Of a DNA stretch of 44,264 nucleotides, positions 16,501-33,804 are shown piece by piece (within the stretch, counting starts at the first letter, position 1; each line of letters begins with the position of its first letter). Source of the DNA: Acidobacteriota bacterium (GTDB taxonomy: Bacteria > Acidobacteriota > Terriglobia > Terriglobales > Acidobacteriaceae); contig QIAB01000045.1 in the NCBI GenBank assembly GCA_003225455.1, positions 41,880 through 86,143 on the forward strand, written 5' to 3'. Under the pieces are notes generated by a model that saw only the letters and a program-made list of their open reading frames with translations, ran no database searches and was not told where the DNA came from. The translations under genes and the position numbers were made by a program.

Positions 16501-17904
16501 CTATTGCTCCCACCCTCCGCCCAAACCCTTATAGAGCTGCACCAGGGCCAACAGCTCGTTTTGCTGTGCCTGGACCAAGTTAAGTTCGGCAGAAAAATAA
16601 TTCGTTTCATTGGTGAGCACCTCGAGATAGCTAGCGACTCCACCGCTGTACCTCATGTGGGACAGCCGCGCCGCATCTTGCGCGGAGTTCACGAGCAACT
16701 GTTCTTGTTCACGAAACTCCTGTGTCTTGCGGTAGGCGATCAGGGCGTCGGAAACGTCGCGGAAGGCGCCCTGAATGGTCTCCTGATAAAAGAGCACTGC
16801 TTCTTGATGTTGGGCTTCTGCGAGGCGAACGTTCGACCGGAGTCTACCCGCTGTGAATATGGGCTGCGCGAGCGTTGAGCCAAAGGTCCAGAATCCCGCG
16901 GGACCGGTGAACAAAGCCGTCAGCGCCGAGCTTTGATATCCAGAATTGGCAGTTAGCTCAATCTGCGGAAAATATTGAGATCTGGCAACTCCGATCTGGG
17001 CGTTGGCGGCGATCAACTGTTGTTCAGCCTGGCGTATGTCTGGCCGGCGTTGCAATAGCGACGATGGCAGGCCAGCGGGCACTGTAGGTGGATGTGGCTG
17101 ATCGGTTAACGACCTGCCACGTGGTACGGTCGCAGGATTGTTACCTAAAAGGATGCTGATGAAATTCTCCTGCTGCTCGATTTGTTGTTCCAGACTTGGA
17201 ACTTCTGAACCCGCGGTAAAGACAAGCTGCTCGGCCTGGCGGACATCGAGCAGAGATGTCGAACCGCCATTGGCCAGAATTTGCGTTAGGCGGAGCGAGT
17301 CCTGGCGCGATGTCAGCGTGTGCCGTGTGATTTCGAGCTGCAGGTCAAGTGCCCGCAGGCTAAAGTAAGCACTGGCCACGTTGGCCACCAGTTCTGTCGC
17401 GATCTCTCGCTGACCCCATTCGGTTGACGCGAGGTTGGCGCGCGCCGCTTCCGTGGAGCGGCGAAACTTTCCCCAAAAATCCAATTCCCAGTTGAAATCG
17501 AGTCCGACTCGATTGGTACTCGTCTCGACTGGAGGGATCCCGCTTTGCCCCGAAATACGCTTATTTAGGCCTGAGGCATCGGCTGAAATTGTGGGAAACT
17601 GGTCGGCGCGTGTGATACCCAGTGTCGCTCTTGCCTGGAGAATCCGTGTCCCGGCGCGGCGAAGATCATAGTTCTGTTGAAGGGCAGTCTTGATGAGTTC
17701 CTTAAGTTGTTCGTCTTGAAAGACGTCCCACCATTTTTGTTCAGCGAACGATGTAGTATCACCCTTGGCCGCTTCTTCCGGCGTCAACCCTCGATAGATT
17801 GTTGGAGTGTTAACCGTAGGCTTCTTGTAATTGGGCCCGACTGCGCAACCGGATGTCAGGCAAATAACCAGAAGAAGCGCCGCGCTTTTCTTGGTGTTAG
17901 TCAT
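16501..17904 (-). CDS. Outer-membrane efflux lipoprotein (OprM/NodT family)
   Basis: A 467-residue outer-membrane channel of an RND pump. The signal peptide ends in a lipobox LTSGC with Cys20 as lipidation site, followed by the typical AVGPNYKKPTV. Two OEP repeats follow (about 60-250 and 270-460), with LDFNWELDFWGKFRR and RPDIRQAEQQLIAANAQIGVARSQYFPQI characteristic of this family. The start at 17904 overlaps the permease stop by 8 bp and has GGGAG six bases upstream; an extra 19-residue extension is unlikely because it precedes a good signal peptide. It is third gene of the operon and would dock with the fusion protein and permease to export drugs or solvents. Confidence 0.92.
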   Translation of the reverse strand: MTNTKKSAALLLVICLTSGCAVGPNYKKPTVNTPTIYRGLTPEEAAKGDTTSFAEQKWWDVFQDEQLKELIKTALQQNYDLRRAGTRILQARATLGITRADQFPTISADASGLNKRISGQSGIPPVETSTNRVGLDFNWELDFWGKFRRSTEAARANLASTEWGQREIATELVANVASAYFSLRALDLQLEITRHTLTSRQDSLRLTQILANGGSTSLLDVRQAEQLVFTAGSEVPSLEQQIEQQENFISILLGNNPATVPRGRSLTDQPHPPTVPAGLPSSLLQRRPDIRQAEQQLIAANAQIGVARSQYFPQIELTANSGYQSSALTALFTGPAGFWTFGSTLAQPIFTAGRLRSNVRLAEAQHQEAVLFYQETIQGAFRDVSDALIAYRKTQEFREQEQLLVNSAQDAARLSHMRYSGGVASYLEVLTNETNYFSAELNLVQAQQNELLALVQLYKGLGGGWEQ

Positions 17905-20900
17905 CCGCGGCTCCCGGGCTCTGAGACGGAAACTGTGCAGCATCGACCGGAACCGTTCCAAGGAGCTTAGGCCTGGAGAATCTCTCCACTATGTAGAACA
18001 CCGCCGGAACAAAGAAAATACCGAGAGCGCTCGCTGCCAGCATGCCGCCGATGACTGTGGTGCCCATGATCTGGCGGGCCACGGAGCCGGCACCGGTTGC
18101 CGTCCAAAGAGGAATGCATCCGCAGATGAATGCCAATGAAGTCATCAGGATCGGACGAAGGCGTAGCTTTGCTCCCTCAAGCGCCGCATCGATCAGGTTT
18201 TTGCCTTTCTCATATTCGTCCTTAGCAAATTCGACAATGAGAATGGCATTTTTGGCAGCCAACCCGATCAGCATGACTAATCCGATTTGTGAGTAAACGT
18301 CGCTTTCGATCTGCACCATATAAGGCGGGTAGAAGGCGCTGACCAGCGCGCGTCGAAGCCAGAGAACCGCGAAAGCGCCAAACACAGCAATCGGAGTACT
18401 CAGTAGAACGCTGAACGGCAGTGTCCAGCTCTCGTAGAGCGCAGCCAGGATCAGAAACACAAAAAGCAATGAGAGTCCAAAGATCACCGCCGGCGGCACA
18501 CCCTGCTGTGCCTTTTTTTCTTGGAAAGATATGCCAAGATAGTCGTAACCCATTTCGGGTGGCATGGTCTGGGCAAAGACCTGCTCCAAGGCCGCCATGG
18601 CCTGATTGGAACTGTATCCCGGGGCGGCACTGCCATTTATTTGCGCAGAGCGAAAAAGGTTATAGCGCATTGTGAATTCAGGACCAGCACGAGATTCAAA
18701 GTTCGTGAGCGCCGAAAGCGGAACCATGCTCCCACGGTTGTTCTTGACATAAAACTGGCCCACATTTTCGACGTTCGTGCGGTAATCGCCTTCCGCCTCG
18801 ATATAGACCTGCCACTGCCGGCCAAAGCGATTGAAGTAATTGATGAACAACCCGCCCATGAATGCCTGAATGGTTCGATAGACATCGTTGATGGCCACGC
18901 CCTGCTTGATGACTTTGTCACGGTCGACATCCACGAATTGCTGCGGTACGCTGCCCAGAAAGGTCGTACTCACGCTTGCGATCTCGGGGCGTTTACGAGC
19001 AGCCGCCAGAAACGTATTCAGGTTCGACGAGAGGAACTCGATATCTTTGCCGTCCCGATCTTCAAGAACGAAAGTGAACCCTCCCGAGGTACCTACGCCA
19101 GGGATGGCGGGAGGTGAAAAATCGAAAGCAATCCCTTCCGGCAGTTGGCTGAGTTCGCGATTCAAACGCGCTTTGATCACTTGAAACTGCTCCAGCCGGC
19201 TTTTTCGATCGTCCCATGGTTTCAACGTGACGAAGAGGAAAGCGTTGTAACTCGCACGGGTAAAGCTGAGCAAACTGAACCCAACGACACTGGTCGTCGA
19301 TTGCACTCCCGGTGTGTGTGCCAGGATGCTTTCGATTTTCTCCACGACGTGATCGGTACGCTCGAGAGACGCAGCACTGGGCAACTGCAGATTGACGTAG
19401 AGGTATCCCTGGTCTTCGTCTGGCAGAAAGCTGGATGGAACTCTATTGCTGAAAAAAGCCGCCCCTGCTCCGAAAGCCGCCAGCATGATTATGGCGATGG
19501 CGAACTTGCGAATGAGCGCGCCGCAAATCCTGACGTAGGAGTTGGTCGCACGTTCAAAGGTGCGATTGAACCAATCAAAAAACCTTCGCAATAAACCGCC
19601 TCGCTTTTCCCTGGGCCGCAGCAGCAATGCAGCGAGAGCCGGGCTGAGCGTGAGAGCGTTGAATGCCGAGATAAGCACCGAGACAGCGATGGTTATCGCA
19701 AACTGTTGATATAACCGGCCGGTAATTCCGGGTATGAAACCTGTGGGCACAAATACTGCCGACAGCACGAGCGCAATTCCCACGACAGGCCCGGAGATCT
19801 CTTCCATGGCTTTCAAGGCAGCGGCCTTCGGTGACATTCCGTCCTCGATGTGCCGCTCCACGGCCTCGACCACCACGATGGCGTCATCCACCACCAGGCC
19901 GATCGCCAACACCAGACCAAACAACGACAGCGTATTTATGGAAAAGCCAAACAACGGGAAGAAGATAAAGGCGCCCACCAGTGATACGGGCACGGCTAGA
20001 AGCGGAATCAGGGTCGCCCGCCATCCCTGCAGGAAGAGGTAGACGACGAGAATCACCAACACAATGGCGATGACGAGGGTGAGAATAATCTCCTTTATTC
20101 CTTGGACCACTGAGCGGGTTGTATCAAGGGCAGTGGCGTAATCCATGTCGCCAGGAAAGCGAGTCTTCAGTTCCGCCACCAGTTTGTTCACGCCGCTTGC
20201 AGCATCCACCGCATTGGAGCCGGGTAACTGATAAACGGCGATTATGGCGCTCGGCTTCCCGTTGAGGCGGCCGGCTACCGAATAGTCCTGTGCTCCAAGT
20301 TCGATACGAGCGACGTCTTTCACGCGCACCACGCCGCCTTCCGGGGATTCACGAACCACAATCTCTCCGAACTCCTCCGGCGAAACTAACCGCCCCTGGG
20401 CTCGAACCGCGTACGAGAACTGCTGTCCGGAAGGAATTGGTTCTCCTCCGATTTTTCCGGCAGGATTTACTGTGTTTTGGGTTTGGACTGCATTGACAAT
20501 CTCCGGAACCGTGATACCCAGCTTGGCAAGCTGGTCCGGCTTAACCCAGAGCCGCATGGCATACTGTCCTGCCCCGAATACTTGCACCTGCCCGATTCCG
20601 GATGACCGGGTTATGGAATCGACCAGATTGATGTATGCGTAATTGGCAAGGAAGCGTGCGTCGTACGTACCGTGCGGCGAATACAGAGCAATAAGCATGA
20701 GCGGCGCGGTAACCGATTTGCGAACAGTAATTCCGTAGTTCGTCACATCGATAGGGAGCTGAGATGCCGCCTGTGTCTCTCTGGACTGCGCGAGGATCAA
20801 ATCGTTGTTGGGATCCGTCTTAACGTCGAAGTTGACAACCAGAGTCGTCTGCGAGTTCCCAGTTGCGTTCAATGAGTACATGTAATTCATGTTGTCCACA

Positions 20901-21096
20901 CCGTTCATCTGTTGCTCGATGGGAGTGGCAACTGATTGCTCGAGAGTTTGGGCATCCGCGCCAACATAGGTGGCAAGCACCTGAATTTCCGGGGGCGCGA
21001 TGTTAGGAAACTGAGCGATTGGCACGCACCAACTATCACCGTGACGATGGCAATCACCATGGCGACAATCGGACGATTGATGAAAAACTTGGACAT
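17897..21096 (-). CDS. RND efflux permease (HAE1/AcrB family), N-terminus frameshifted
   Basis: An inner-membrane proton-driven drug exporter. The long open frame (17897-21025, 1042 codons) starts at VPIAQFPNIAPPEIQV and is otherwise complete. It holds the proton-relay Asp pair in LVVDDAIVVVE, the essential Lys in LAAKNAILIVEF, and two sets of membrane segments around large periplasmic loops. The first membrane helix (MSKFFINRPIVAMVIAIV) is encoded at 21096-21027 in another frame. Compared with AcrB/MexB about five residues and one base are missing at the junction near 21025, so roughly 16 bases seem lost. Either the gene is inactive or the sequence has an error. It sits between the fusion-protein gene (3-bp gap) and the outer-membrane gene (8-bp overlap). 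Confidence 0.85.
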
Positions 21097-21099
21097 AAC

Positions 21100-22326
21100 T
21101 CAGCTGCCTGCGGGCGAAGCAGTTGCGGACGCAATCTTGACCGGCATGCCATCCCTGACCTTTTGCACGCCCTCCACGACAACTCGCTCTCCGGGCTTGA
21201 TTCCGTGTTCAATAATCCACATCGGGCCGCTCCGCTCTCCCACTTGCACGGTCCTGATGCTCACCTTGTCGTCACTACCGACCACCGCAACCTGGTACGT
21301 GCCTTGGAGTTCAGTGACCGCTTTTTGCGGTACCAAAAGCGCCGCCGGTCTGACATAGCTGACGAAACGCACACGACCGTACTGACCAGGCCGAAGAACA
21401 TTGTCGGGATTAGGAAACAGTCCGGCCAGACGAATAGACCCTGTCTGCGCATCGACGTGACGATCAGCAGCAAAGAATTTCCCCTTCATGGGGTATTTCG
21501 ATCCATCGGCGAGAATAAGTTCCAATACGAGCTGTCTTTCAGTCTTCTCTCGCGACGCGACCGTGGGATTGCGCTGGACAAAAGCGAGGTATTGCTGCTC
21601 ACTGACAACGAAATAGGCTTTGATGGGGTCGAGCTGTGAGACGGTGGTGAGAACGGTCTGTGGGCCGACCAGATTTCCAACCTGGCCGGTGGCGATACCG
21701 GCCACGCCGTCGACCAGCGAGCGAACGTTCGTGAACTCGAGGTTGATTTCTGCCTGTTCGACCGCCGCCTTGTCCGCTTGGACAGTCGCTTTCCCCGCCA
21801 AGTTTGCCTGTATGTCGTTGTCGAGTTGGCTCTGCGCGATTGCCTTCTCCTTTGCTAGAGGAGTGTCACGCTGCACGTCCAGCTGGGTTTTCCCGAGCTG
21901 TGCTTCTGCCTGCGCGAGCTGTGCCTTATTTTGATCAAGCACCGCTTGAAAAGGCCGCGGATCGATCTTGAAGAGCACATCGTTCTTGCGAACCAACGCG
22001 CCCTCCCGGTAATTCTGTTTAATGAGGTACCCTGAGACCTGCGGCTGGATTATCGCGTTTACATACCCATCGAGCGTTGCAATCCATTCGTGGTAGACCG
22101 GCACGTCTTGTTGAGTGACCTCAACAATCTGGACGGTAGGCGGAGCACCAGGCGATGCCGAGGCGCTCTTAGTTCCACACGCCTCAGAAAATAGAAGAAG
22201 CCACAAAAGGCAGCTAACCAGCCACACATTCTCGGTGTGGTCTGTTGAGGGGAAATTGTAATCCCGGCCTTTTGTGTGTCCCAGATATGGAAACGAGTCG
22301 CCGGAACGGTATGATTGCGCCCACAT
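21100..22326 (-). CDS. RND efflux periplasmic adaptor (membrane fusion protein)
   Basis: A 408-residue MFP/HlyD-type adaptor linking permease and outer-membrane channel. A hydrophobic stretch at 34-47 ends in FSEAC, a likely lipobox with Cys50. The lipoyl half-motifs are NAIIQPQVSGYLIKQNYREGALVRKNDVLF-like (about 85-115). A Gln/Ala-rich alpha-hairpin spans 120-200, followed by the beta-barrel (QVGNLVGPQTVLTTV, DPIKAYFVVSEQQ) and the membrane-proximal domain (RPAALLVPQKAV). The ATG at 22326 is chosen because AAGGAGG lies just upstream; a GTG close to the hydrophobic stretch would give a more usual N-terminus but lacks a ribosome site. First gene of the efflux operon. Confidence 0.9.
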   Translation of the reverse strand: MWAQSYRSGDSFPYLGHTKGRDYNFPSTDHTENVWLVSCLLWLLLFSEACGTKSASASPGAPPTVQIVEVTQQDVPVYHEWIATLDGYVNAIIQPQVSGYLIKQNYREGALVRKNDVLFKIDPRPFQAVLDQNKAQLAQAEAQLGKTQLDVQRDTPLAKEKAIAQSQLDNDIQANLAGKATVQADKAAVEQAEINLEFTNVRSLVDGVAGIATGQVGNLVGPQTVLTTVSQLDPIKAYFVVSEQQYLAFVQRNPTVASREKTERQLVLELILADGSKYPMKGKFFAADRHVDAQTGSIRLAGLFPNPDNVLRPGQYGRVRFVSYVRPAALLVPQKAVTELQGTYQVAVVGSDDKVSIRTVQVGERSGPMWIIEHGIKPGERVVVEGVQKVRDGMPVKIASATASPAGS

Positions 22327-22626
22327 GACTCCCTCCTTCAGCTTCTGCAGTTCTTCGTGGTCTAAACCCGGCCGGGATGAATTCGTACTCCGGGACGAAA
22401 CTTCAGTCAGCATTCAATGAATGCTGGTATCGTCTTTAGCCGATGGCGCACCATTCTATTCCTGCGCGAAAGGTGAGTGCAAAACCTCAATCTGGCTGTG
22501 CCTTGGCCGCAGAGAGCCCGGACGGACGAACAGGAATTGCGCGACCGAATGGGATTTTCGGTATCTAATTAAGTCATTCCGGCAATCCCCAAGGTCTGTC
22601 ATGTTTATCCGGGACTGAGACTTATC
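22327..22626. other. Divergent intergenic region, nothing recognised
   Basis: About 300 bases separate the efflux operon (minus) from the receiver-flavoprotein gene (plus). Promoters for both should lie here. I see no long inverted repeat, no terminator, and no small gene that can be supported. No TetR- or MarR-type regulator gene accompanies the efflux operon in this window. Confidence 0.4.
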
Positions 22627-24297
22627 ATGGCGAAACCAAGTTTGTTGAGTGTGGATGACGACTCCGATGTTTTGCGGGCGATTGAGCGCGATCTTCGTTC
22701 GCAGTATGGCGCTGGATATCGTGTCATCGGAAGTGATTCTCCCGAGGGCGCGCTCGACCTGTTAAAGCAGTTGAAGCTGCGCAACGATAGCGTGGCCTTG
22801 CTTCTGGCCGACCAGCGCATGCCGCGCATGGACGGGGTGGAATTTTTGCAACAGGCAATGGGAGTCTTCCCCGGAGCGAAGCGGGCATTGCTCACTGCCT
22901 ACGCGGACACGAACGCTGCGATCAGCGCCATCAATCAGGCCGGCATCAACTACTTTTTCCTGAAGCCATGGGACCCTCCGGCGGAGCACCTGTATCCGCA
23001 ATTAGATGATTTGCTCGACGACTGGCAAGCTTCCTTTCGTCCAACGTTTCAAGGGATTCGGGTGCTGGGCACCCGCTGGTCGCCCCGCTCGTATGAGCTC
23101 CGGGACTTCCTAGCCCGCAACCATGTGCCCTATCAGTGGATCGACGTTGAGCTTTCCGCAAATGATCCCGAAACCAAGCGGCTTGTGGAGGCTCTGGGTC
23201 CGGAGGCTGCCAATCTTCCCGTGGTGCTCTTCCCCGACGGGACGAAGCTTCTTGAGAGTGTGCCGGCGGACGTCGCCCAAAAAGTTGGGTTGCGAACGCG
23301 TGCGCAAACCAGTTTTTACGACCTTGCCATCGTTGGGGGAGGGCCGGCGGGTTTGGCCGCGGCCGTTTATGGCGCCTCGGAAGGTTTACATACGGTGATG
23401 ATTGAGCGGGAAGCACCCGGCGGTCAGGCGGGAATGAGCTCCCGCATTGAGAACTATCTTGGATTTCCGACCGGACTCAGCGGCGGCGATCTGGCCCGGC
23501 GTGCGGTGGTGCAAGCCCAGCGTTTCGGAGTGGAAATTCTGGCGCCGCAGGAGGCGCTCAGTGTCCGAACGGAGGGGCCTTACCGAATTATTAAGCTCCT
23601 GGATGGCAACGAGATTTCCTGCCATGCGCTGATGATCGCGACGGGTGTGCAGTGGCGGCGCCTGGAAGCTCCGGGAATCGATCGGTTGCAGGGGGCAGGG
23701 ATCTACTATGGCGGCGGCGCTACGGAGGCGCTGTCCTGTAAGGGAGAGATCGTCTATGTGGTGGGCGGCGCAAACTCGGCCGGTCAAGCAGCCATGAACT
23801 TCGCGAAATTCGCGGAGCGCGTCATCATCCTGGTGCGTGGCGACTCGCTTTCCAGCACCATGTCGCAGTACTTGATCGACCAAGTTCAGGAGACGCCTAA
23901 CATTCAGCTTTGGACACACGCCAGCGTGGCTGAGGCGCATGGCGAAACCCACCTGGAAGAGATTTCGGTGCTTTGCTCCGACACCGGCAAGATAGAGCGA
24001 GTGCCGGCGAGTGCGATGTTCATCTTTATTGGGGCGTTGCCGCGGACTGATTGGCTGACCGGTGTGGTCGAGCGGGACGATCGCGGTTTCCTGTTGACCG
24101 GTCCTGACCTTATACGCGACGGGCAACGCCCGAAAGGATGGGCTCTCGACCGCGATCCGTTTCTACTCGAAACCAACGTGCCCGGTATTTTTGCCGTGGG
24201 CGATGTGCGACATGGCTCTATAAAGCGGGTAGCTTCGGGAGTCGGTGAAGGATCCGTGGCAGTCCAGTTTATCCATCAGTACTTGAGCAAGGTATAA
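22627..24297 (+). CDS. Receiver / glutaredoxin-like / thioredoxin-reductase-like fusion flavoprotein
   Basis: A 556-residue cytoplasmic three-part protein. Residues 4-132 form a receiver with phosphoacceptor Asp62 (LLADQRMPRMDG), Thr90 (LLTAYAD) and Lys113 (FLKPW). Residues 143-222 form a thioredoxin/glutaredoxin-like domain (IRVLGTRWSPRSYELRDFL, LPVVLFPDGT) in which the CPxC site reads S-P-R-S (152-155). Residues 230-556 form a thioredoxin-reductase-type flavoprotein with FAD loop GGGPAGLA (237-244), NAD(P) loop VVGGANSAGQ (378-387) and GDVRHGSIKRVA near the end. The redox CATC motif is absent; the matching region is YYGGGATEALSC with one Cys371. The next gene, a histidine kinase, begins immediately after the stop (TAA-ATG), so both are certainly co-translated. 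The weak ribosome site does not affect the choice of ATG 22627. Confidence 0.9.
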   Translation: MAKPSLLSVDDDSDVLRAIERDLRSQYGAGYRVIGSDSPEGALDLLKQLKLRNDSVALLLADQRMPRMDGVEFLQQAMGVFPGAKRALLTAYADTNAAISAINQAGINYFFLKPWDPPAEHLYPQLDDLLDDWQASFRPTFQGIRVLGTRWSPRSYELRDFLARNHVPYQWIDVELSANDPETKRLVEALGPEAANLPVVLFPDGTKLLESVPADVAQKVGLRTRAQTSFYDLAIVGGGPAGLAAAVYGASEGLHTVMIEREAPGGQAGMSSRIENYLGFPTGLSGGDLARRAVVQAQRFGVEILAPQEALSVRTEGPYRIIKLLDGNEISCHALMIATGVQWRRLEAPGIDRLQGAGIYYGGGATEALSCKGEIVYVVGGANSAGQAAMNFAKFAERVIILVRGDSLSSTMSQYLIDQVQETPNIQLWTHASVAEAHGETHLEEISVLCSDTGKIERVPASAMFIFIGALPRTDWLTGVVERDDRGFLLTGPDLIRDGQRPKGWALDRDPFLLETNVPGIFAVGDVRHGSIKRVASGVGEGSVAVQFIHQYLSKV

Positions 24298-25676
24298 ATG
24301 GTCGAAAAATCGGAACTACTTCGCGTTACAGCGTTCGCTGACCTGCCCGACGATCAGCTTGCCTGGTTCATCAGCCAGTGCGAGGAACAGGTCCTCAAAC
24401 CCGGAGATACGTACATCTGCCAGGGTGATCCTGCGGAGAACATGTTCGTAATGTTGGAAGGAGAATTCCAGGCGCGAGGCGAAATTAACGGCGAGACATT
24501 TTCTTTTCCGATCAAGGCGGGAGAGGTAACCGGTCTTCTGCCCTTTTCGAGGATGAAGCGCACGCCTGTGACCGGACGCGCACTCGGCAATGGCCGGCTG
24601 TTGCGTTTTCCTTCGGCGCACTTCCCGGAGCTTGTACAAAAAATGCCGGAGCTCACCACGCGCCTGGTGGGACTGATGTCCGACAGAATCCGCGAGACCA
24701 CGCGCATCGAACAACAGCGAGACCGTCTGGCTTCCCTGGGGAAACTCTCGGCGGGCCTTGCACATGAACTAAACAATCCCGCTTCTGCTGCGAAACGTGC
24801 CACGAGCCAGTTGCGCGACATTCTAAAGAAGATCAGGGACGCGAGTCTCGAGTTGGGAAGGCGTGACCTCACGCCGGCGCAGAAATCAGAGATTGAAAAA
24901 CTGGAAGCGTCGTTCACGCAAAAAGACGTAGTTCCACCCGATGCGCTGACCATCAGCGACCTGGAATCGATTCCCTATTGCGAAGTCACGGGCAGAACGA
25001 CTTATGGCAATTGGCGGCTGACCTGGCGCGAAGGAGTATTAAGCCGGATGTGCTTGAGTCGTTGTTTGCAAACCTCGATGCCGACACCGCTCGGGCCGCT
25101 CTGGTGAGGATCGCCGCTTCCGTGGAGGTCGCGAGTCTATTGCATGAAATCGAGAGCAGCACCTCGCGCATTTCGGACTTGGTCCACGCGATCAAGGAAT
25201 ACACCTACATGGACCAGGCGCCGGCGCAAAACGTGGACATCGTGAAGAGCCTGGAAATCACCCTGACCATCTTGAATCACAAGCTGAAACAAGGCGTGGT
25301 GGTGCAGCGCGATTACCAGCGGGTTCCGCTTCTGGTGAATTCGTTCGGGAGCGAACTCAACCAGGTCTGGACCAACGTTATTGATAATGCGATCGACGCG
25401 ATGCACGGAAAGGGCGAGCTTCGCGTCCGAACCTACCGCGACGCCAGTTGTGTCGTAGTTGAGATCGGCGATAACGGTCCGGGGATTTCACCCGAGGTGC
25501 AGCCCCACATCTTTGAACCTTTCTTCACCACTAAGGGAGTTGGAGAAGGGACGGGACTCGGCCTGGACACTGTGCAACGCATTGTCAAGAAGCACCGGGG
25601 AAATATCCAGGTTACTTCCAAGCCCGGTGACACGCGCTTTCAAATTTGGCTGCCGTTGGCGGAGGCCTCGACCTAA
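24298..25676 (+). pseudogene. Cyclic-nucleotide-binding-domain histidine kinase, frameshifted
   Basis: Together the two frames encode about 460 residues. Residues 1-125 form a cNMP-binding/Crp-like sensor domain (LKPGDTYICQGDPAENMFVMLEGEF). A HisKA region follows with His156 in SAGLAHELNNPASAAKR. After a linker the other frame supplies LRSHGQNDLWQLA, SSTSRISDLVHAIKEYTYMD and a full ATPase domain: N-box NQVWTNVIDNAIDAM, GDNGPGIS, and GTGLGLDTVQ. The frame breaks near 24966-24980; a single missing base around 24966 restores a continuous protein. The ATG directly abuts the stop of the receiver-flavoprotein gene, so the kinase most likely phosphorylates that receiver. No transmembrane segment is present. 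The break may be a sequence error, since all kinase motifs survive. Confidence 0.85.
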
Positions 25677-25894: not shown

Positions 25895-25928
25895 CTCCTG
25901 TTGTTCCTCATTGAAGGAGGAAGAGTCT

Positions 25929-28305
25929 ATGCCCCGGAAGCATCCGTTTCCATTGATACTTTTTCTTTTCCTGGCCGGAGGTGTTTGCGCGCCTGCGCGG
26001 GCGGAAATTGGAACGATTACCACGATCGCAGGAGGAGGGCCGAAAAATGTGTTGGCCACCAAAGCCCACCTGCACAATCCCACCGATGTTGCCACGGACT
26101 CGCAAGGAAACGTCTACATCGTCACATCTGGTCAGGCCGAAGTATTCCGGGTGGATGCTGTCACCGGCGTGTTGACTGCTGCTGCAGGTAGCGATAGCAG
26201 TGGTTTCAATGGCGATGGCGGTCCGGCCAAGCAAGCCAGCTTGAACGGTCCATACGGACTAGCGGTGGATGCTGCGGGTAACTTGTTCATCGCCGATTCC
26301 TATAACGATCGAATCCGCCGAGTTGACGCGGTAACGCACCGGATCACCACCTTCGCGGGAGGCGGGACCGGGTGTGCCGGACATACTTATATCGGCGATA
26401 GCTGCGCCGCCACAGCCGCCATCTTATATCTTCCGAGCGGCGTGGCAGTAGATGGCGCGGGCAATGTCCTAATTGCGGATCTCGGCCATAACCGCATCCG
26501 ACGCGTGGATGCGGTTACCGGAGTGATCACGACGGTCGCCGGAGGCAAAACAGGCAACCTGGGCACTCTTGGAGACGGCGGCTTGGCAACTGACGCCAAC
26601 TTGTCATTCCCGCAAGGAGTTTCTCTGGATGGCGCCGGCAACGTGCTGATTGCGGACACTAATCACAACCGGATTCGGAGAGTAGATGCGACCACACACA
26701 TCATCACCACGGTCGCAGGCGCGAACAGGCCAGTCAGGGCGCTGGCAGATGCAATGGGCAATCTGTTCATTACACACCGAGGGCTGCTGCAACCGCATCC
26801 TGCGAATCGACGAGACAAGCGGGATGATCACAACCGTCGCCGGCACCGGCGCCTATGGTTATACAGGCGATAACGGTCCAGCAACCAGCGCAACCCTGGC
26901 AAATCCCTATGGGATCAACCTTGATCGCGCTGGCAATCTGCTTATTGCCGACGCCAAGAACAACCGCGTACGCCACGTGGATATTGCGACAAACGTGATT
27001 ACGACGTCGGCGGGCGCCAGTGGCCCGAGGGACTATGATCTTTACGCTCTTCAAGCAAGTCTGAGCAGCGTGGGGCAGGTCGCCATCGATGGCGCCGGGA
27101 ACGTTTTCATCTCGGAAAGCGGTTCCAACACCCTTCTGCGTCTAGACTCTGTGACCAACCTCCTTTCTAAAGTGGGATTCGGAACTCCCTTCAATGCCAT
27201 GTTCGGGCTTGCGCGAGACCGCGCTGGCAATTTGTTCGTTGCTGACGAGACACAAATCTGGCGCGTGGATCCTGTAACAGGCGTGTTCACCACGGTAGCG
27301 GGTAACGGCAGCGGATGCCCGCAGGAGACCGACGGCCTTGGCGATGGTTGTCCCGCCACCGACGCCTGGTTGGAACCTCTATCTATCGCCGTGGATGATG
27401 CGGGGAATTTATTTATTGGCGATGGCGCCGGCGGCAACTCCCTCGTTCGCCGCGTGGACCGAGTGACTCAGATTGTTACCATTGTCGCCGGAGTTGTCGC
27501 GGGAGGAAGCTCAGGTTGCCCGCAAGAAATCAACGACATTGGCGACGGTTGCCTTGCCACCCAGGTCGATTTGGGCAGCATAGGCGGAGTCGCAGTGGAT
27601 AGTAAAGGCAATGTACTTCTTACAACGGGCAGTCGCGTTCGGAGGGTGAATGCGAGTACGCACATCATTACAACAGTGGCAGGTACCGGCGATGAGGCCT
27701 ACAGCGGGGATAACGGCCCCGCTACCAGCGCCGGGGTCGCTGCCTGGCAAGTGGCGGTGGACGGTGTGGGGAACCTTTTTATTACAGGAAACGGCCGCAT
27801 CCGAAGGGTAGATGCGGTGACGAAGGTGATCACCACGGTGGCGGGCAACGGTATTCCAGGTTACAGCGGAGATGGTGGCCTAGCTACGAAAGCAAGTATT
27901 CAGGCCCTAAGTATAGCTTCCATCGACAGTTACGGGAACCTGTTCATCGGCGACGGAGCGAACTTTCGCGTTCGCAAGGTACCCCTGGGTGTGCCGGGGA
28001 TACTACTTTCGACGACTGCGCTGAACTTCGGCAACGTAGTGCTTAACACCCAGAGCCCAGCCCAAACCGTCACCATAACCAACAATGGTACGGCACTGCT
28101 GGAATTCTTCAGCATCGCCGCTTCTGGCGGGTTTCGTCAATCAAATACCTGCCACAGCGGGGTGCAGCCGGGAGCCGCTTGCCAGGTGAGCGTAATCTTC
28201 GTACCGAATAGCATCGGCGCGCAGAGTGCGGTACTAACGATCAGGCCGAATATTCCGGGTGACGCCAGGAAGGTAACTCTGTCAGGCGTTGGCATCAGCC
28301 AGTAA
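25929..28305 (+). pseudogene. Secreted NHL-repeat protein with C-terminal Ig-like domain, frameshifted
   Basis: Encodes about 790 residues across two frames. After a signal peptide (LILFLFLAGGVCAPARA) come at least ten NHL/beta-propeller repeats of the form L-x-x-P-x-G-V-A-V-D-x-x-G-N-x-(F/L)-I-A-D-x-x-x-N-R-I-R-R-V-D, each followed by I-T-T-V-A-G. The C-terminus (about 100 residues, from STTALNFGNV) is an ASPM/SPD-2/Hydin-like Ig fold with TVTITNNGTA and VIFVPNSIG. The ATG at 25929 has AAGGAGG eight bases upstream. The frame changes near 26775-26795, between GNLFIT and GCCNRILRID, where removing one base restores the repeat. Such proteins are probably cell-surface or periplasmic binding propellers; the ligand is unknown. 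Confidence 0.8.
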
Positions 28306-28678: not shown

Positions 28679-29713
28679 ATGTCCACTACAGTCGAAACCC
28701 TCACACTGATTTGGCAGCGTGTACTGCAGCAGTCGCCGATCAGTCCTAAAGATAACTTCTTTGATCTCGGGGGCACTGATGCGTTAGCGGGTCTGCTATG
28801 TTCCGAGATCGGACAAGTGTATGGCCGGCAACTGCCGAGTGCTATGCTCCGCCAAGCGCCAACGATCACGGCCCTGGCTGCCCTTTTGGAGCAAGCCACT
28901 CTTCCCGGGTCTTCGCCCATTATCCAGATTAAGGCTGGTAGTGAGAAGCCCCCGATTTTCATTGCACACGGCCTCTGCGGTACCGTGCGGTTTACCGAAC
29001 TGGCAAGGCACATTCCAACGGGGCAGCCAATCTACGGAATTCAGGGAAAGGGAATAGACGGGATGGAGGAGCCGTTTGAGCGCGTTGAGGATATGGCTAG
29101 GTTCTATCTCGAGGAACTCGAGAAGCTATACCCCCAAGGTCCTTACATCCTGATCGGTTACTCCTTCGGTGGTTTGGTGGCGCTGGAAATGGCACAACGC
29201 CTGTCAGAAACTGGAACGAATGTAGCACTGCTGGTACTCGTGGATGCATATCCCCATCCACGTTACATGACTTGGCCCGTGCGCCTGCGCCTGGTTGCGA
29301 CGAGAGCGAGAAGTCATGGTAGCGAGATGCGGCAGTTGCCGCTCCCGAGCGTATTTTCATACCTCATTCGCGGGCTTAAGCGTCGGTTGCATATTTCAGG
29401 AGCTCTCGACGAGAACGAGATGCTGGGCTTACCGTTCGCCGAGGCCGCTCTGCGGCGGGTTAAGCAGAAAGCTTACTTGGCGTATGTAAGCTATCAGCCA
29501 AGGTTCTATCGCGGCAAGATAAACTTCGTGACCGCCGAGATAAAATCTTTCTTCCCTGGAGATCCAGCCACAGTGTGGTCGGATCTGGCAACCGAGCTTC
29601 AAGTCGAGGTCATACCTGGCAATCATCTGAATATAGTCACCACGCAGTTTAAGCCTCTGGCTGAAGTACTTACTCGCTACGTGCAGCAAGTTACGCTACT
29701 AGGGAAACTCTGA
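28679..29713 (+). CDS. Carrier-protein-like / thioesterase didomain protein
   Basis: A 344-residue protein built like the end of a nonribosomal peptide synthetase. Residues 1-75 have the carrier fold (IWQRVLQQ, DNFFDLGG, AMLRQAPTITALAALL), but the phosphopantetheine Ser of the GGxS motif is Asp34 (GGTDALA). Residues 80-340 are an alpha/beta-hydrolase type I thioesterase with HGLCG, nucleophile Ser162 in GYSFGG, Asp189 in VLVDAYP and His316 in GNHLNI. No adenylation or condensation domain is in the window. It may release or hydrolyse acyl chains from a partner carrier, with the carrier-like part serving only as a docking module. The ATG at 28679 has a weak ribosome site. Confidence 0.85.
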   Translation: MSTTVETLTLIWQRVLQQSPISPKDNFFDLGGTDALAGLLCSEIGQVYGRQLPSAMLRQAPTITALAALLEQATLPGSSPIIQIKAGSEKPPIFIAHGLCGTVRFTELARHIPTGQPIYGIQGKGIDGMEEPFERVEDMARFYLEELEKLYPQGPYILIGYSFGGLVALEMAQRLSETGTNVALLVLVDAYPHPRYMTWPVRLRLVATRARSHGSEMRQLPLPSVFSYLIRGLKRRLHISGALDENEMLGLPFAEAALRRVKQKAYLAYVSYQPRFYRGKINFVTAEIKSFFPGDPATVWSDLATELQVEVIPGNHLNIVTTQFKPLAEVLTRYVQQVTLLGKL

Positions 29714-29882: not shown

Positions 29883-32138
29883 TCACGCGATCAGGTCCTC
29901 AATTTTCAGTGGCAGCTCGCGAACATGAACTCCAGTTGCGTGATGGACCGCCGAAGTTACGGCGGCCGCAACGCCGGCCAGACCGATCTCGCCGATCCCG
30001 CGTGCACCCAGTTCATTAATCTCCTTGTCGGGGTAATCAAGGAAGTGCACGTCGATCGGAGGCGCGTCGGCGTTCACCGTCATCATGTAATCAGCCAGAT
30101 TGCTGTTGATGGGCGCACCGTTCTGCGGATCGTAAGTGGTTTCTTCGAATAGCGCCATTCCGATGCCCATCACCACCGCGCCCTGGATCTGGTTGCGGCC
30201 GGCAAGAGGATTCAAGATTCGGCCTGCGTCCATCACCGTCACGACGCGGCTGACGCGCAGGCGCGCGGTCTCCGGCTGCCACGTGACTTCCACAAAGTGG
30301 CAGCCGAACGAGTGCTTGGAGAATTTCTGGTTCGGAGCAAAAGCCGTCTGTTCAGCCCTGCCGCTGCCTGTGACCAAGCGTACATTCCCCCTCTGCAGCA
30401 CGTCCCCGAACGCAATACCTCGTGCAGGACCCTCAGCCCTTACGAACACGCGCCCGCCTTCAAGCGCAAGATCGTCGGGCTTGTGCCCTAAAAACGGCGA
30501 GACGGGCGTTGTGACGGCGATGATCAGCAGCGATGTGATGGCTTGGTCTGCGGCCTTGAACACAGCCGGGATCACCGAACTAGTGGCCAAGGACCCGCCT
30601 GAGATCGGACCCTCTGGAAGCGCGCTGTCCCCCAGCTCAACATCGATCTTCTCCACCGGCACACCAGTTTTCTGCGACGCAAGCTGGGCCAGGATCGTAT
30701 ACGTGCCGGTTCCGATGTCTTGTGTTGCGCAGGCAACGCGAACCGTTCCATCGTCTCGCAGTTCGAGATTGGCTTCGGCGGCAAATGTCCCAGCGATCCA
30801 TGCCGCGCCGGCCATTCCCCAACCCAGGGTCAAGCCATCGCGCTTCATTGAGCCGACCGCCGGGTTGCGCTTCGACCATCCGAATTTCTCGGCGCCCCGA
30901 TTTAGGCACTCCACATAGTGTCGCGACGAGAACGGCAGATTGAGCGACTCGTCGAGCTTCGGCTCGTTGAGAATGCGGAACTGGACAGGATCCATCTTGA
31001 GCCGCTCGGCCATCTCATTCATTGCCGATTCGGTGGCATAAAGTCCGGGGACTGCGCCGGGACCGCGCATGTCCGACGTTGCGCCGATATTGCGCCGTGC
31101 GCGCCCGAAGCTCACGCGCAAATTGGGAACGCTGTAATGGAAAGGAGTGGCTTCGCCGCAGTCCTCGTGATAGGCGTCGATCATCGACATGTGGTAGACG
31201 TAGTCGTGCTGCAGCGAAACGAGCTTGCCGTCGCGCGAGGCGCCGAGGCGAACACGCTGCTGAGTGCGCGCCCGATGCCCGACTGCCTGGAACATCATTT
31301 TGCGGCTGACGACCAACTTAACTGGCTTACCTACCTGACGTGCCGCCGCGGCCGCGAGCGGGACATGCGTCCAGGGATAAAGTTTGCCCCCGAATCCCGA
31401 TCCCAGGAACTTTGAAATAACGCGAACGTTCTCCTTGGGCAGACCGAACATCTGCGAGAGAACGCTGCGCATATTCACAACGCCTTGGGTCGAGTCATAC
31501 AGCGTCAGCAACGGACCGTCCCAGAGCGCCACGGTCGAGTGCAGCTCGAGTGGATTGTGCGTTTCAGCAGGAGTGACGTACGTTTCGTCCAGCTTGACGG
31601 CCGCATTCTCGAGCGCAGCTGCGGCGTCGCCGCGATGGCTTTGCAGTCGCTCCATCGGCCCGTATGCGGTGAAGACGACGTCAGGATCATTGCCTGCTTC
31701 CAGGTGAGACTCAAGGTTGAATTTCTCTTTCGAGTAGGTCGCACGGACGGTATCGGCGGCAGCCTTGGCAGTTTCGAATGTGTCGGCAACGGCCAGAGCG
31801 ATGTATTGGCCCCAGTAACGGATCGTGTCATCTTCAAACGGAGGTCGCCGTTCTAGACAGACGCGATCGAAATCAGGCGCGGGAGTGGAGCGGAAGATCT
31901 TGCCAATGTTCCCGCGATGAAGCACCGCACGTATGCCCGGCATCTTCTCAGCCGCTGCTGTATCCAGCGAGAGCAACTTGCCATTGGCGATCGTCGCCTC
32001 CACGGGAACCGCGTAAAGCATGCCGGGGAACTGGAAATCAGAGGCGTACTTTGCCACTCCGGTGACTTTGCGCGGACCGTCGACACGGAGAGTGTCGCGT
32101 CCGATAGGAGAAGAAGTTGATTGCGGCGATGTCGCCAT
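29883..32138 (-). CDS. paoC: Aldehyde oxidase, molybdenum-cofactor subunit (PaoC/YagR type)
   Basis: A 751-residue catalytic subunit of a xanthine-oxidase-family enzyme, expected to oxidise aldehydes to acids with water as oxygen source. Family marks include the N-terminal D-G-x-x-K-V-T-G-x-A-K-Y opening, GSGFGGKLYPW for cofactor contact, MRGPGAVPG, and the catalytic Glu in GARGIGEIGLAG near the C-terminus. AGGAG lies five bases before the ATG at 32138. It is third in the order FeS-FAD-Mo, 16 bp after the FAD subunit. It has no signal of its own and would be co-exported with the Tat-signal FeS subunit. Genes for cofactor insertion (paoD-like) are not here. Confidence 0.9.
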   Translation of the reverse strand: MATSPQSTSSPIGRDTLRVDGPRKVTGVAKYASDFQFPGMLYAVPVEATIANGKLLSLDTAAAEKMPGIRAVLHRGNIGKIFRSTPAPDFDRVCLERRPPFEDDTIRYWGQYIALAVADTFETAKAAADTVRATYSKEKFNLESHLEAGNDPDVVFTAYGPMERLQSHRGDAAAALENAAVKLDETYVTPAETHNPLELHSTVALWDGPLLTLYDSTQGVVNMRSVLSQMFGLPKENVRVISKFLGSGFGGKLYPWTHVPLAAAAARQVGKPVKLVVSRKMMFQAVGHRARTQQRVRLGASRDGKLVSLQHDYVYHMSMIDAYHEDCGEATPFHYSVPNLRVSFGRARRNIGATSDMRGPGAVPGLYATESAMNEMAERLKMDPVQFRILNEPKLDESLNLPFSSRHYVECLNRGAEKFGWSKRNPAVGSMKRDGLTLGWGMAGAAWIAGTFAAEANLELRDDGTVRVACATQDIGTGTYTILAQLASQKTGVPVEKIDVELGDSALPEGPISGGSLATSSVIPAVFKAADQAITSLLIIAVTTPVSPFLGHKPDDLALEGGRVFVRAEGPARGIAFGDVLQRGNVRLVTGSGRAEQTAFAPNQKFSKHSFGCHFVEVTWQPETARLRVSRVVTVMDAGRILNPLAGRNQIQGAVVMGIGMALFEETTYDPQNGAPINSNLADYMMTVNADAPPIDVHFLDYPDKEINELGARGIGEIGLAGVAAAVTSAVHHATGVHVRELPLKIEDLIA

Positions 32139-32154
32139 GGTTGCTCCTGAGAAA

Positions 32155-33156
32155 TCAGCTTGCCGTGGCCATTCGCAAGGCGTGCATCAGGCAGCGTTTG
32201 GCCAATTCGATCTTGAATTTGTTCTCGCTCTGCGGCTTTGCGTCTCGCAGCGCCGCTTCCGCAGCTTGGCGGAAGGTACTGTCGTTGGCAGGCTTGCCGA
32301 CGAGCACAGCTTCGGCTTGCGACGAGCGCCAGGGTTTCGTGCCCACGCCACCAAGCGCAATGCGGGCGCGCACAATGTTGCCACTTGCAGTCGTAAGCAC
32401 CACTGCTGCCGATGCCAGGGCGAATTCATACGACGCGCGATCGCGCAGTTTCAGGTAAACCTGCTTGCTTCCAGCGACTGGTGGCGGCAGTGTGACGTGC
32501 GTGATCAGATCGCCGGGTTCCAGCACGGTCTCGCGATTCGGTGTGTCGCCGGGCAGAAGATGGAAATCGCCGAATGCGACCGCACGTGAGCCCTTCGGCC
32601 CCTGAATCTGAACGGTTGCTTCCAGCGCCGCCAAGGCCACGCACATGTCGGATGGATTCGTGGCGATGCACTGCTCGCTCGCGCCGAGGATAGCGAGCGT
32701 GCGATTGTGACCGGTGATTGCTGGGCATCCGCTACCGGGTTCGCGCTTGTTGCACGCCATGGCGGTGTCGCGGAAGTAGACGCAGCGGGTTCGCTGCAGC
32801 AGGTTTCCGCCGACGGTGGCCATGTTGCGGATCTGCGCCGACGCGCCTTGCAGGATCGCCTGCGACAGAACCGAATAATCCTTTTGTACCTTGGCGTCGT
32901 TCGCGAGATCTGAGTTGCGGGCCATTGCGCCAATCTTCACGCCGCCATCGGATGTAGTTTCGATCTTGTCGAGTGGCAGGCGATTGATATCGAGCACGCG
33001 CGCGGGTGTCTCGACATTCAGCTTCATCAGATCGATCAGCGTGGTGCCGCCACCCAGAAAGCGCACATCGGCCCCCTGCTGCGCCGTTTTCGATTGCGCG
33101 GCGGTTGCGATCGCCGCCGCCTGATCTGCTGGACGGATGAACTCGAAAGTATGCAT
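32155..33156 (-). CDS. paoB: Aldehyde oxidase, FAD (and 4Fe-4S) subunit (PaoB/YagS type)
   Basis: A 333-residue subunit transferring electrons from the 2Fe-2S centres to FAD. The FAD-binding region has RFLGGGTTLIDLMK near residue 50 and ATVGGNLLQRTRC near 115. The segment after it contains Cys residues in RTRCVYF, AMACNK, GSGCPA and EQCIA, the cysteine-rich insertion that in E. coli PaoB carries an extra 4Fe-4S cluster and marks the Pao subgroup. AGGAG lies seven bases before the ATG at 33156. It is tightly spaced (15 bp) after the FeS subunit gene. Confidence 0.9.
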   Translation of the reverse strand: MHTFEFIRPADQAAAIATAAQSKTAQQGADVRFLGGGTTLIDLMKLNVETPARVLDINRLPLDKIETTSDGGVKIGAMARNSDLANDAKVQKDYSVLSQAILQGASAQIRNMATVGGNLLQRTRCVYFRDTAMACNKREPGSGCPAITGHNRTLAILGASEQCIATNPSDMCVALAALEATVQIQGPKGSRAVAFGDFHLLPGDTPNRETVLEPGDLITHVTLPPPVAGSKQVYLKLRDRASYEFALASAAVVLTTASGNIVRARIALGGVGTKPWRSSQAEAVLVGKPANDSTFRQAAEAALRDAKPQSENKFKIELAKRCLMHALRMATAS

Positions 33157-33171
33157 CGAGAGACTCCTGCG

Positions 33172-33804
33172 CTAAGCGCGCTTGCGGACCTGCTGAATCG
33201 CCGCAACGATGTTGGCATAGGCGCCGCAGCGGCAGATGTTGCCGCTCATCAATTCCTTTACCGCAGCGTCATCCGGGCCGCATGGCTCCTTCAGCAATGC
33301 GACCGCGGACATGATTTGCCCCGAAGTGCAATAGCCGCATTGATAAGCATCGTGTGTGAAGAACGCTTCCTGCATGGGATGCATTGCCTCAGGTGTACCC
33401 AGGCCCTCGATGGTTGTGATTTCTTCCCCATCGTGCATGACAGCAAAGTTTAGGCATGAAAGCACGCGCCGGCCGTTCACATGGACCGTGCATGCGCCGC
33501 ACTGTCCATGATCACAGCCTTTTTTTGTTCCTGTCAGCGCCACCGTCTCGCGGATGCCATCCAGCAGTGTGGTCCGCGGGTCAATCCGCAGCGAGTGCTC
33601 CTTGCCGTTTATGCGAAGGGTGATCGAAACTGCGCCTTTAATGGCAGGCACAGCCGCTTCCGCCTCAGCCGTCTCCGCGACGGTGGCCCCACGTGCGGGC
33701 GCGGACGCTGCCATCACACCGGCAGCCACTGTGCTGCCGGCTGTCAACAGGAATTGGCGGCGGTTCGGCCGTTGCGATCCAGCGAAACGATCGTCATTTT
33801 CCAT
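33172..33804 (-). CDS. paoA: Aldehyde oxidase, Tat-exported 2Fe-2S subunit (PaoA/YagT type)
   Basis: A 210-residue iron-sulfur subunit. The N-terminus carries a twin-arginine signal NRRQFLLTAG (14-23) followed by an Ala-rich hydrophobic stretch, so the whole complex is probably translocated folded to the periplasm. The plant-type 2Fe-2S motif is CDHGQCGACTVHVNG with a later Cys in VLSCLN; the second 2Fe-2S domain has CGYCTSGQ and GNICRCGAY. The start at 33804 has only a modest ribosome site (AGGATC). It is first gene of the paoABC operon. Confidence 0.9.
   Translation of the reverse strand: MENDDRFAGSQRPNRRQFLLTAGSTVAAGVMAASAPARGATVAETAEAEAAVPAIKGAVSITLRINGKEHSLRIDPRTTLLDGIRETVALTGTKKGCDHGQCGACTVHVNGRRVLSCLNFAVMHDGEEITTIEGLGTPEAMHPMQEAFFTHDAYQCGYCTSGQIMSAVALLKEPCGPDDAAVKELMSGNICRCGAYANIVAAIQQVRKRA

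What the first reader, a model, noticed from the sequence alone, without database searches (positions are those of the whole stretch)
22627..25676. Receiver-flavoprotein plus cNMP-domain kinase: a candidate redox two-component system
The sequence shows a receiver fused to a glutaredoxin-like domain and a thioredoxin-reductase-like flavoprotein, followed with no gap (TAA-ATG) by a soluble histidine kinase with a cyclic-nucleotide-binding domain. Both redox sites usual for these folds are gone: the Grx-like CPxC reads SPRS and the flavoprotein lacks CATC, keeping only Cys371. Phosphorylation of Asp62 could therefore switch a flavoenzyme or flavin sensor directly, without a DNA-binding output. 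I recall similar fusions being annotated in databases, but I know of no assigned function.
Basis: partly seen in the sequence, partly recalled or inferred. Interest (0 to 1): 0.75.

Follow-up and report, generated by a model that had tools for sequence, protein, structure and literature searches.

The report
Kinase-controlled flavoprotein without redox cysteines
Bacteria of many phyla carry a two-gene signalling pair in which a soluble kinase probably switches a thioredoxin-reductase-like flavin protein that has lost its redox cysteines; the receiver-plus-enzyme design has been noted in print, but I found no report of what it does.

Summary
22627-24297 encodes an intact receiver + glutaredoxin-like + thioredoxin-reductase-like protein; TAA-ATG leads into a cNMP-domain histidine kinase that is split by a change of frame near 24963-24969 in this assembly (28 of 28 close relatives with both parts have it open).

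It is not local. Of 151 family genes with a canonical receiver (window included), 146 have this kinase family in the fetched locus; three of the other five have it elsewhere. Genes with a degenerate receiver never do (0 of 38), nor do 45 receiver-less relatives, many with a cNMP domain instead. The tree shows only three changes of receiver state, so I claim no P-value, and unpaired kinases of this family also exist.

The cysteine losses are family-wide: no CPxC and no CxxC at the CATC place in 234 distinct genes, while FAD and NAD(P) residues are almost invariant. It is not an ordinary thiol reductase. The kinase's cNMP domain lacks the CRP-type Glu in this clade, so cAMP sensing is doubtful.

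A new lead: small UBP zinc-finger genes lie near family members (20 of 139 places, 0.38 expected); the window has none nearby. Phosphotransfer and reaction are inferred.

The parts
22627..24297 (+). receiver + Grx-like + TrxR-like flavoprotein gene (556 aa)
   Evidence: ORF; Pfam; AlphaFold model mean pLDDT 90.3, pTM 0.73
22627..22986 (+). receiver domain, residues 1-120
   Evidence: Pfam Response_reg 7-117, E 7.6e-13
22810..22812 (+). Asp62, predicted phospho-acceptor (with D10/D11, T90 at 22894-22896, K113 at 22963-22965)
23053..23292 (+). glutaredoxin-like domain, residues about 143-222, without CPxC (SPRS at 23080-23091)
   Evidence: alignment; Pfam Glutaredoxin in 6 of 55 and 2 of 42 family members (sets overlap), not in the window protein; model
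23311..24294 (+). TrxR-like FAD/NAD(P) module, residues 229-556
23704..23730 (+). YYGGGATEA in place of the CATC active site (family signature about YYGAxxxEA)
23737..23739 (+). Cys371, the one widely conserved cysteine
24100..24162 (+). insert GPDL...W.L.R.P. relative to the genome's own thioredoxin reductase, conserved in the family
24298..24969 (+). histidine kinase, first part: CRP-like cNMP fold and H box (this frame runs on out of register to a stop at 25107)
24763..24765 (+). His156, predicted phospho-donor (AGLAHELNNP)
   Evidence: 85 of 85 paired kinases have His here
24963..25676 (+). histidine kinase, second part in another frame: HATPase_c
   Evidence: ORF 24978-25676; HATPase_c E 7.1e-27; frame boundary

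Best explanation
A two-component system whose output is an enzyme-like flavoprotein. The soluble kinase senses a ligand or state through its CRP-like N-terminal domain, phosphorylates itself on His156, and passes the phosphate to Asp62 of the receiver on the flavoprotein. Through the Grx-like linker domain, receiver phosphorylation changes the domain movement (flavin-reducing versus flavin-oxidising positions) of the TrxR-like module and so gates hydride flow from NAD(P)H to FAD and on to an acceptor that is not a disulfide. In paralogues the same core is controlled in cis by a cNMP domain instead. Shown: architecture, conservation of cofactor sites, cysteine loss, kinase pairing, absence of the kinase where the receiver is degenerate. 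Inferred: phosphotransfer, its effect on the flavoprotein, the acceptor, the ligand.
For: Pairing: 146 of 151 canonical-receiver genes (window's own included) have the kinase in the fetched locus; of the 5 without, 3 were looked up and have it elsewhere, 2 were not looked up (L213, which has T90V, and L242). In 200 genomes (the window's included) all 76 with a receiver-type gene have the kinase; 6 of 124 without do. Degenerate receivers: 0 of 38 distinct have it in the locus; in two such genomes it sits beside a second receiver-type gene. Receiver-less relatives: 0 of 45 distinct. Catalytic His, Asn, Asp of 85 paired kinases: 85, 85 and 84 (one gap); distance matrices of the 85 pairs correlate, rho 0.61, reached by 0 of 999 permutations. 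FAD and NAD(P) residues G237, G239, G242, N276, G380, N383, S384 in all 237 rows, G525 and D526 in all but one gap. The modelled module matches the flavin-reducing form of L. lactis thioredoxin reductase (5mh4, rmsd 1.9) much better than the flavin-oxidising form of the same enzyme (5mjk, rmsd 7.3). Module swap: 27 of 42 receiver-less relatives match Pfam cNMP_binding.
Against: No biochemistry. Only 3 changes of receiver state lie on the tree and the sign test cannot reach significance, so the 146/5/0/38 table is mostly shared ancestry. The distance correlation partly reflects species phylogeny. The kinase family also has unpaired members: 38 of 82 genomes with a kinase match have two or more matches (in a few, pieces of one gene), and in the 55-59% identical acidobacterial clade the copy beside the flavoprotein is often less like the window's kinase than a copy elsewhere. 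In this genome the kinase is broken. A flavin sensor or scaffold role is not excluded. The flavin-reducing position is a prediction without cofactor.
Confidence: 0.6

Rival explanations
1. The flavoprotein is a redox or NAD(P)H sensor that reports to the kinase: the flavin state alters the receiver and so the kinase's kinase/phosphatase balance, with signalling running the other way or on to other receivers.
For: FAD and NAD(P) residues kept, redox cysteines gone; no DNA-binding output; unpaired kinases of the family exist.
Against: cNMP-fused and core-only paralogues without any kinase in the locus suggest the core is an output with swappable regulators, not an input to a kinase.
Confidence: 0.2
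2. It still acts on thiols: the conserved lone Cys371, about ten residues after the lost CATC, works as a one-cysteine site with a partner such as the zinc-finger protein.
For: Cys371 in 142 of 151 canonical-receiver genes and 36 of 45 receiver-less ones; kept in only 2 of 40 degenerate rows.
Against: It aligns after the active-site stretch, not at CATC; Tyr, Val or Ala in some canonical-receiver members; the Grx site has no CxxC in any of 237 rows.
Confidence: 0.1
3. In this genome the pair is a decaying pseudogene system: the frame change kills the kinase and only the flavoprotein remains.
For: Kinase in two frames; no other match to the kinase in G000 at E 1e-40 than these two pieces. A second apparent frame change lies in the NHL-repeat gene just downstream (25911-26873 and 26686-28305).
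Against: Both pieces are still 75% and 91% identical to an intact relative, with no stop inside; receiver residues are canonical; two frame changes within about 2 kb also fit base-calling or assembly error.
Confidence: 0.35
4. The kinase senses cAMP or cGMP through a working cyclic-nucleotide site.
For: CRP-like fold; Pfam cNMP_binding in 17 of 17 kinases scanned; 18 of 85 kinases keep the CRP-type Glu.
Against: The window's kinase has TG-LLPFSR at the cassette; 41 of 85 kinases are of the LP[FY]SR type and none of these keeps the Glu (the window's own broken kinase is not among the 85). That Glu contacts the cyclic nucleotide in CRP is recalled knowledge.
Confidence: 0.15

Closest known systems
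REC-thioredoxin reductase response regulators ('Mycobacterium-like', Galperin et al. 2018, PMC5847659; two passages read)
   Same: Receiver joined to a thioredoxin-reductase-like module; Mycobacterium/Mycolicibacterium relatives were found here (L111-L114, L116, L118).
   Different: The passages read only name the combination; they give no kinase partner, cysteine status or function. That it is the same family is inferred.
Low-Mr NADPH thioredoxin reductase (TrxB, TIGR01292)
   Same: Same FAD/NAD(P) fold over residues 227-556, best Z 35.5, 27-30% identity in the ten best rows.
   Different: No CxxC; scores 200.2 against a cut-off of 343.45; receiver and Grx-like domain in front; insert. The genome has a separate TrxR with CATC.
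AhpF
   Same: Thioredoxin-fold part in front of a TrxR-like module (recalled); second in Foldseek.
   Different: AhpF has CxxC in both parts (recalled); 160.6 against a cut-off of 502.9 here; no receiver in AhpF.
TrxR-like ferredoxin/flavodoxin-NADP reductases (FNR1/FNR2 of Bacillus)
   Same: TrxR fold without a redox CxxC (recalled); in the structural list at Z 27.6-28.6.
   Different: Less similar than thioredoxin reductases proper; ferredoxin binding not tested.
RefSeq 'cyclic nucleotide-binding domain-containing thioredoxin-disulfide reductase'
   Same: Same Grx-like + TrxR-like core.
   Different: cNMP domain in place of the receiver; no kinase of this family in any of 45 distinct receiver-less loci.

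Membership tests
Two-component system (kinase + response regulator) | Receiver with acidic pocket, phospho-Asp, Thr/Ser and Lys | tested here: met
   D10 D11 D12, D62, T90, K113 in the window protein
Two-component system (kinase + response regulator) | Kinase with H box, N and G1 boxes in one open gene | tested here: inconclusive
   Motifs present in 85 paired kinases of relatives, but split over two frames in the window
Two-component system (kinase + response regulator) | Kinase-regulator pairing | tested here: met
   146 of 151 in the locus; 76 of 76 genomes; but unpaired kinases of the family exist
Two-component system (kinase + response regulator) | Phosphotransfer | not testable with these tools
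   needs biochemistry
Thioredoxin reductase (TrxB, TIGR01292) | FAD/NADPH two-domain fold | tested here: met
   Pfam Pyr_redox_2; structure match
Thioredoxin reductase (TrxB, TIGR01292) | Redox-active CxxC in the NADPH domain | tested here: not met
   absent at that place in the window and in 237 rows (three rows have a CRGC at 371-374)
Thioredoxin reductase (TrxB, TIGR01292) | Score over the curated cut-off | tested here: not met
   200.2 against 343.45
AhpF (TIGR03140) | Score over the curated cut-off | tested here: not met
   160.6 against 502.9
Glutaredoxin domain (PF00462) | Profile match | tested here: inconclusive
   No match in the window protein at E 0.1; 6 of 55 and 2 of 42 family members match (sets overlap)
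Glutaredoxin domain (PF00462) | CPxC | tested here: not met
   SPRS in the window; no CxxC at 149-160 in 237 rows
Cyclic-nucleotide-binding domain (PF00027) | Fold | tested here: met
   Pfam E 1.8e-10; a CRP/CAP protein first in Foldseek
Cyclic-nucleotide-binding domain (PF00027) | CRP-type Glu of the phosphate-binding cassette | tested here: not met
   TG-LLPFSR in the window; Glu kept in 18 of 85 kinases, none of the LP[FY]SR type
TrxR-like ferredoxin/flavodoxin-NADP reductase | Ferredoxin/flavodoxin reduction | not testable with these tools
   only fold similarity seen
Three-gene form with zf-UBP | UBP zinc-finger gene beside the pair | tested here: not met
   the genome's only match is at G000:C51:3654, another contig

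The most novel reading that the evidence does not exclude
A widespread, unstudied signalling module in which a thioredoxin-reductase-like flavoprotein without redox cysteines is the common output, plugged into interchangeable regulators (phosphorylated receiver plus its own kinase, cNMP domain in cis, or a degenerate receiver), and works with a small bacterial UBP-type zinc-finger protein as its target or electron-transfer partner: phosphorylation-gated flavin chemistry that controls a zinc-finger protein, independent of thioredoxin.
Probability: 0.25. Interest if true: 0.82.

Novelty: new variant of a known kind. Interest (0 to 1): 0.6.

Why it matters
Most response regulators act on DNA (general knowledge). 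Here a phosphorylation site is wired onto an intact FAD/NAD(P) fold whose usual thiol chemistry has been removed, in organisms that include Streptomyces, Mycobacterium, cyanobacteria and Bacteroidota. If phosphorylation gates flavin chemistry, it would be a direct post-translational switch of a redox protein. The natural contrasts found here (degenerate receivers without kinase, cNMP-fused paralogues, zinc-finger neighbours) make it testable.

Tried and rejected
Rejected: loss of cysteines private to this genome (family-wide). Rejected: kinase as a chance neighbour. Not supported: a shared efflux or other neighbour as a clue. Neighbour clustering over 73 receiver-type and 46 receiver-less loci gave zf-UBP in 14 loci by blastp, but nearly as often (13 loci) a cluster that looks by eye like DNA-binding response regulators, a large common family, then three clusters of 8; only zf-UBP was tested against genome-wide frequency. 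Rejected as proof: Fisher P 7e-9, because the tree shows only 3 changes. Led nowhere: paper searches. Lists were capped: one search showed 20 of 188 papers, 20 of 64, 15 of 1,195, 15 of 29; titles and abstract starts only. Of the four papers, PMC5847659 was read in two passages, PMC6599016 in two passages (unrelated), the other two not opened. A Deinococcus thiol-reductase review (PMC8945050, passages) showed nothing on this family for the terms searched. The distance of Cys371 to the flavin could not be measured: no coordinates are given out. The VIA-align rows span residues 227-556 only, so the receiver and Grx-like parts were not tested by fold.
Full report
WHAT IS THERE. The window lies at G000:C81:41880-86143 of a 4.99-Mb, 195-contig genome. 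Its class is probably Terriglobia (Acidobacteriota): genome G134, listed as 'same class', gave L072, whose DNA is the same as L145, titled 'Terriglobia bacterium'. ORF 22627-24297 (556 aa) carries a receiver (Pfam 7-117), a glutaredoxin-like unit (about 143-222) and a FAD/NAD(P) module (231-542). TAA is followed at once by ATG 24298. The next gene is a soluble kinase: CRP-like cNMP fold and H box, then HATPase_c. In the window it is cut by a change of frame near 24963-24969. Of 29 close relatives (L009-L037), 28 hold both parts and all 28 have them in one frame (L013 ends at its contig's edge). Intact copies therefore exist; whether the window's is a pseudogene or an error cannot be told. A second apparent frame change lies just downstream in an NHL-repeat gene.

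HOW FAR IT REACHES; 103 of 200 genomes (the window's included) have a family member at E 1e-60; one search sorts them into 76 with the receiver form (75 by a match that begins at the receiver's start, five of these in pieces: G056, G061, G067, G106, G113; G108 added by hand, its receiver part being broken off) and 27 with other forms only. Loci with canonical receiver and kinase carry eight phylum names: Actinomycetota 24, Bacteroidota 8, Cyanobacteriota 3, Acidobacteriota 2, and Pseudomonadota, Gemmatimonadota, Thermomicrobiota and Verrucomicrobiota 1 each; 50 of the 91 have no name in that tally. Annotated plasmid records add Deinococcus, Nostoc, Caballeronia and Streptomyces.

THE KINASE AS PARTNER. 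First sample: 101 receiver-type loci (L013, L035, L117 set aside as partial, L057 and L074-L077 dropped as repeats; the window's own locus L001 with its broken kinase is counted). 94 have a canonical receiver (D62, an acid at 10 or 11, K113): 91 have a kinase of this family in the locus, and the other three genomes have one elsewhere. By the stricter rule (same strand, gap under 250 bases) it is 86 of 101. Seven have a degenerate receiver: none has the kinase in the locus. In two of those seven genomes full-length kinases exist, beside another receiver-type gene whose receiver state I did not check; one has only partial matches, four none. 46 receiver-less loci (45 distinct): none. Second sample: one search covered 246 genomes of one class of Actinomycetota relatives (class of L143's genome), 130 with a match; I examined 90 places (30 given as loci with about 1.5 kb flanks, 60 fetched with 2 kb, taken from the top of the list downwards, not at random and not all). 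57 canonical, 55 with kinase; exceptions L213 (T90V) and L242, not looked up elsewhere. 33 degenerate, none with kinase; two of them repeat L127 and L143, which leaves 38 distinct over both samples. The tree of the flavoprotein part shows only three changes of receiver state and six of kinase presence, and the sign test cannot reach 0.05. The association is firm as description, weak as independent statistics. In the 200 genomes all 76 receiver-type ones have the kinase; six of the other 124 do: three are under 86% complete, two have partial matches, one (G183) is a clear exception. Against strict pairing: 38 of the 82 genomes with a kinase match have two or more matches, a few of them pieces of one gene, so unpaired kinases of the family exist.

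THE CYSTEINES. In 237 rows (234 distinct, the window's own included) there is no CxxC at the Grx site and none at the CATC position; three rows have a CRGC at 371-374. The place of CATC holds about YYGAxxxEA; Tyr361 is in 236 of 237 rows. The genome's own thioredoxin reductase has CATC (30% identical). FAD residues G237, G239, G242, N276 and NAD(P) residues G380, N383, S384 are in all 237; G525 and D526 in all but one gap; R404 in 234. Cys371: 142 of 151 canonical, 36 of 45 receiver-less, 2 of 40 degenerate rows. The predicted module lies as in the flavin-reducing form: 5mh4 (titled FR conformation) Z 35.5, rmsd 1.9; 5mjk (same enzyme, FO) Z 30.5, rmsd 7.3. That thioredoxin reductase moves between these positions is established knowledge.

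SWAPPABLE CONTROL. Of 42 receiver-less relatives scanned, 27 match cNMP_binding; others are about 420 aa, core only. RefSeq names one such gene 'cyclic nucleotide-binding domain-containing thioredoxin-disulfide reductase'. The same core thus takes a receiver, a cNMP domain, a degenerate receiver or nothing. Kinase cassettes among 85 pairs: 41 LP[FY]SR, 18 with the CRP-type Glu, 26 neither. I therefore do not expect cAMP binding in the window's type.

A POSSIBLE THIRD PARTNER. Small UBP-type zinc-finger genes (PF02148) turn up in the loci: 34 open frames, in receiver and receiver-less forms, not all directly adjacent and one pair (L072, L145) the same DNA. In the 200 genomes, 20 of 139 places lie within 5 kb of a family member against 0.38 expected (the expectation assumes 4.5-Mb genomes and uniform placing): 6 by receiver-type, 14 by other forms. 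In the second sample 19 of 57 canonical and 4 of 33 degenerate loci have one. Two were confirmed by Pfam. The window has none; the genome's only match is on another contig.

KNOWN OR NEW. Galperin et al. 2018 (PMC5847659; two passages) mention REC with thioredoxin reductase, 'Mycobacterium-like'. In ten searches of an open-access library (several with capped lists, seen as titles and abstract starts) no paper on its function, kinase, cysteine loss or zinc-finger neighbour showed; that is not proof of absence. I rate it a new variant of a known kind.

MECHANISM. Ligand or state, kinase His156, receiver Asp62, Grx-like linker, gated NAD(P)H to FAD to a non-disulfide acceptor. The parts, the pairing and the loss of cysteines are shown; phosphotransfer, gating, acceptor and ligand are inference.

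Noticed in passing
L161 11065-11418; L077 11175-11468; further loci: Small UBP-type zinc-finger genes near this flavoprotein family in several phyla; 20 of 139 zf-UBP places in 200 genomes within 5 kb.
   Followed up: partly
window 25911-26873 and 26686-28305: Two overlapping ORFs in different frames both look like one NHL-repeat protein: a second apparent frame change close to the kinase's.
   Followed up: no
window 16501-22413 (-): Divergent efflux set upstream of the flavoprotein gene: a membrane-fusion protein (Pfam HlyD_3) and, by eye, an RND pump and outer-membrane factor.
   Followed up: partly
L173-L200, L127, L141, L143: Actinobacterial genes with degenerate receivers (E-H...D...V...R or S...M patterns) that have mostly lost Cys371 and have no kinase in the locus.
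   Followed up: partly
L112 7653-10547: Mycolicibacterium austroafricanum locus with two kinases of the family in a row after the flavoprotein.
   Followed up: no
window 28679-29713 and 29883-33804: Carrier-protein plus thioesterase fusion next to a three-gene molybdopterin dehydrogenase set whose [2Fe-2S] subunit has a Tat signal match.
   Followed up: no
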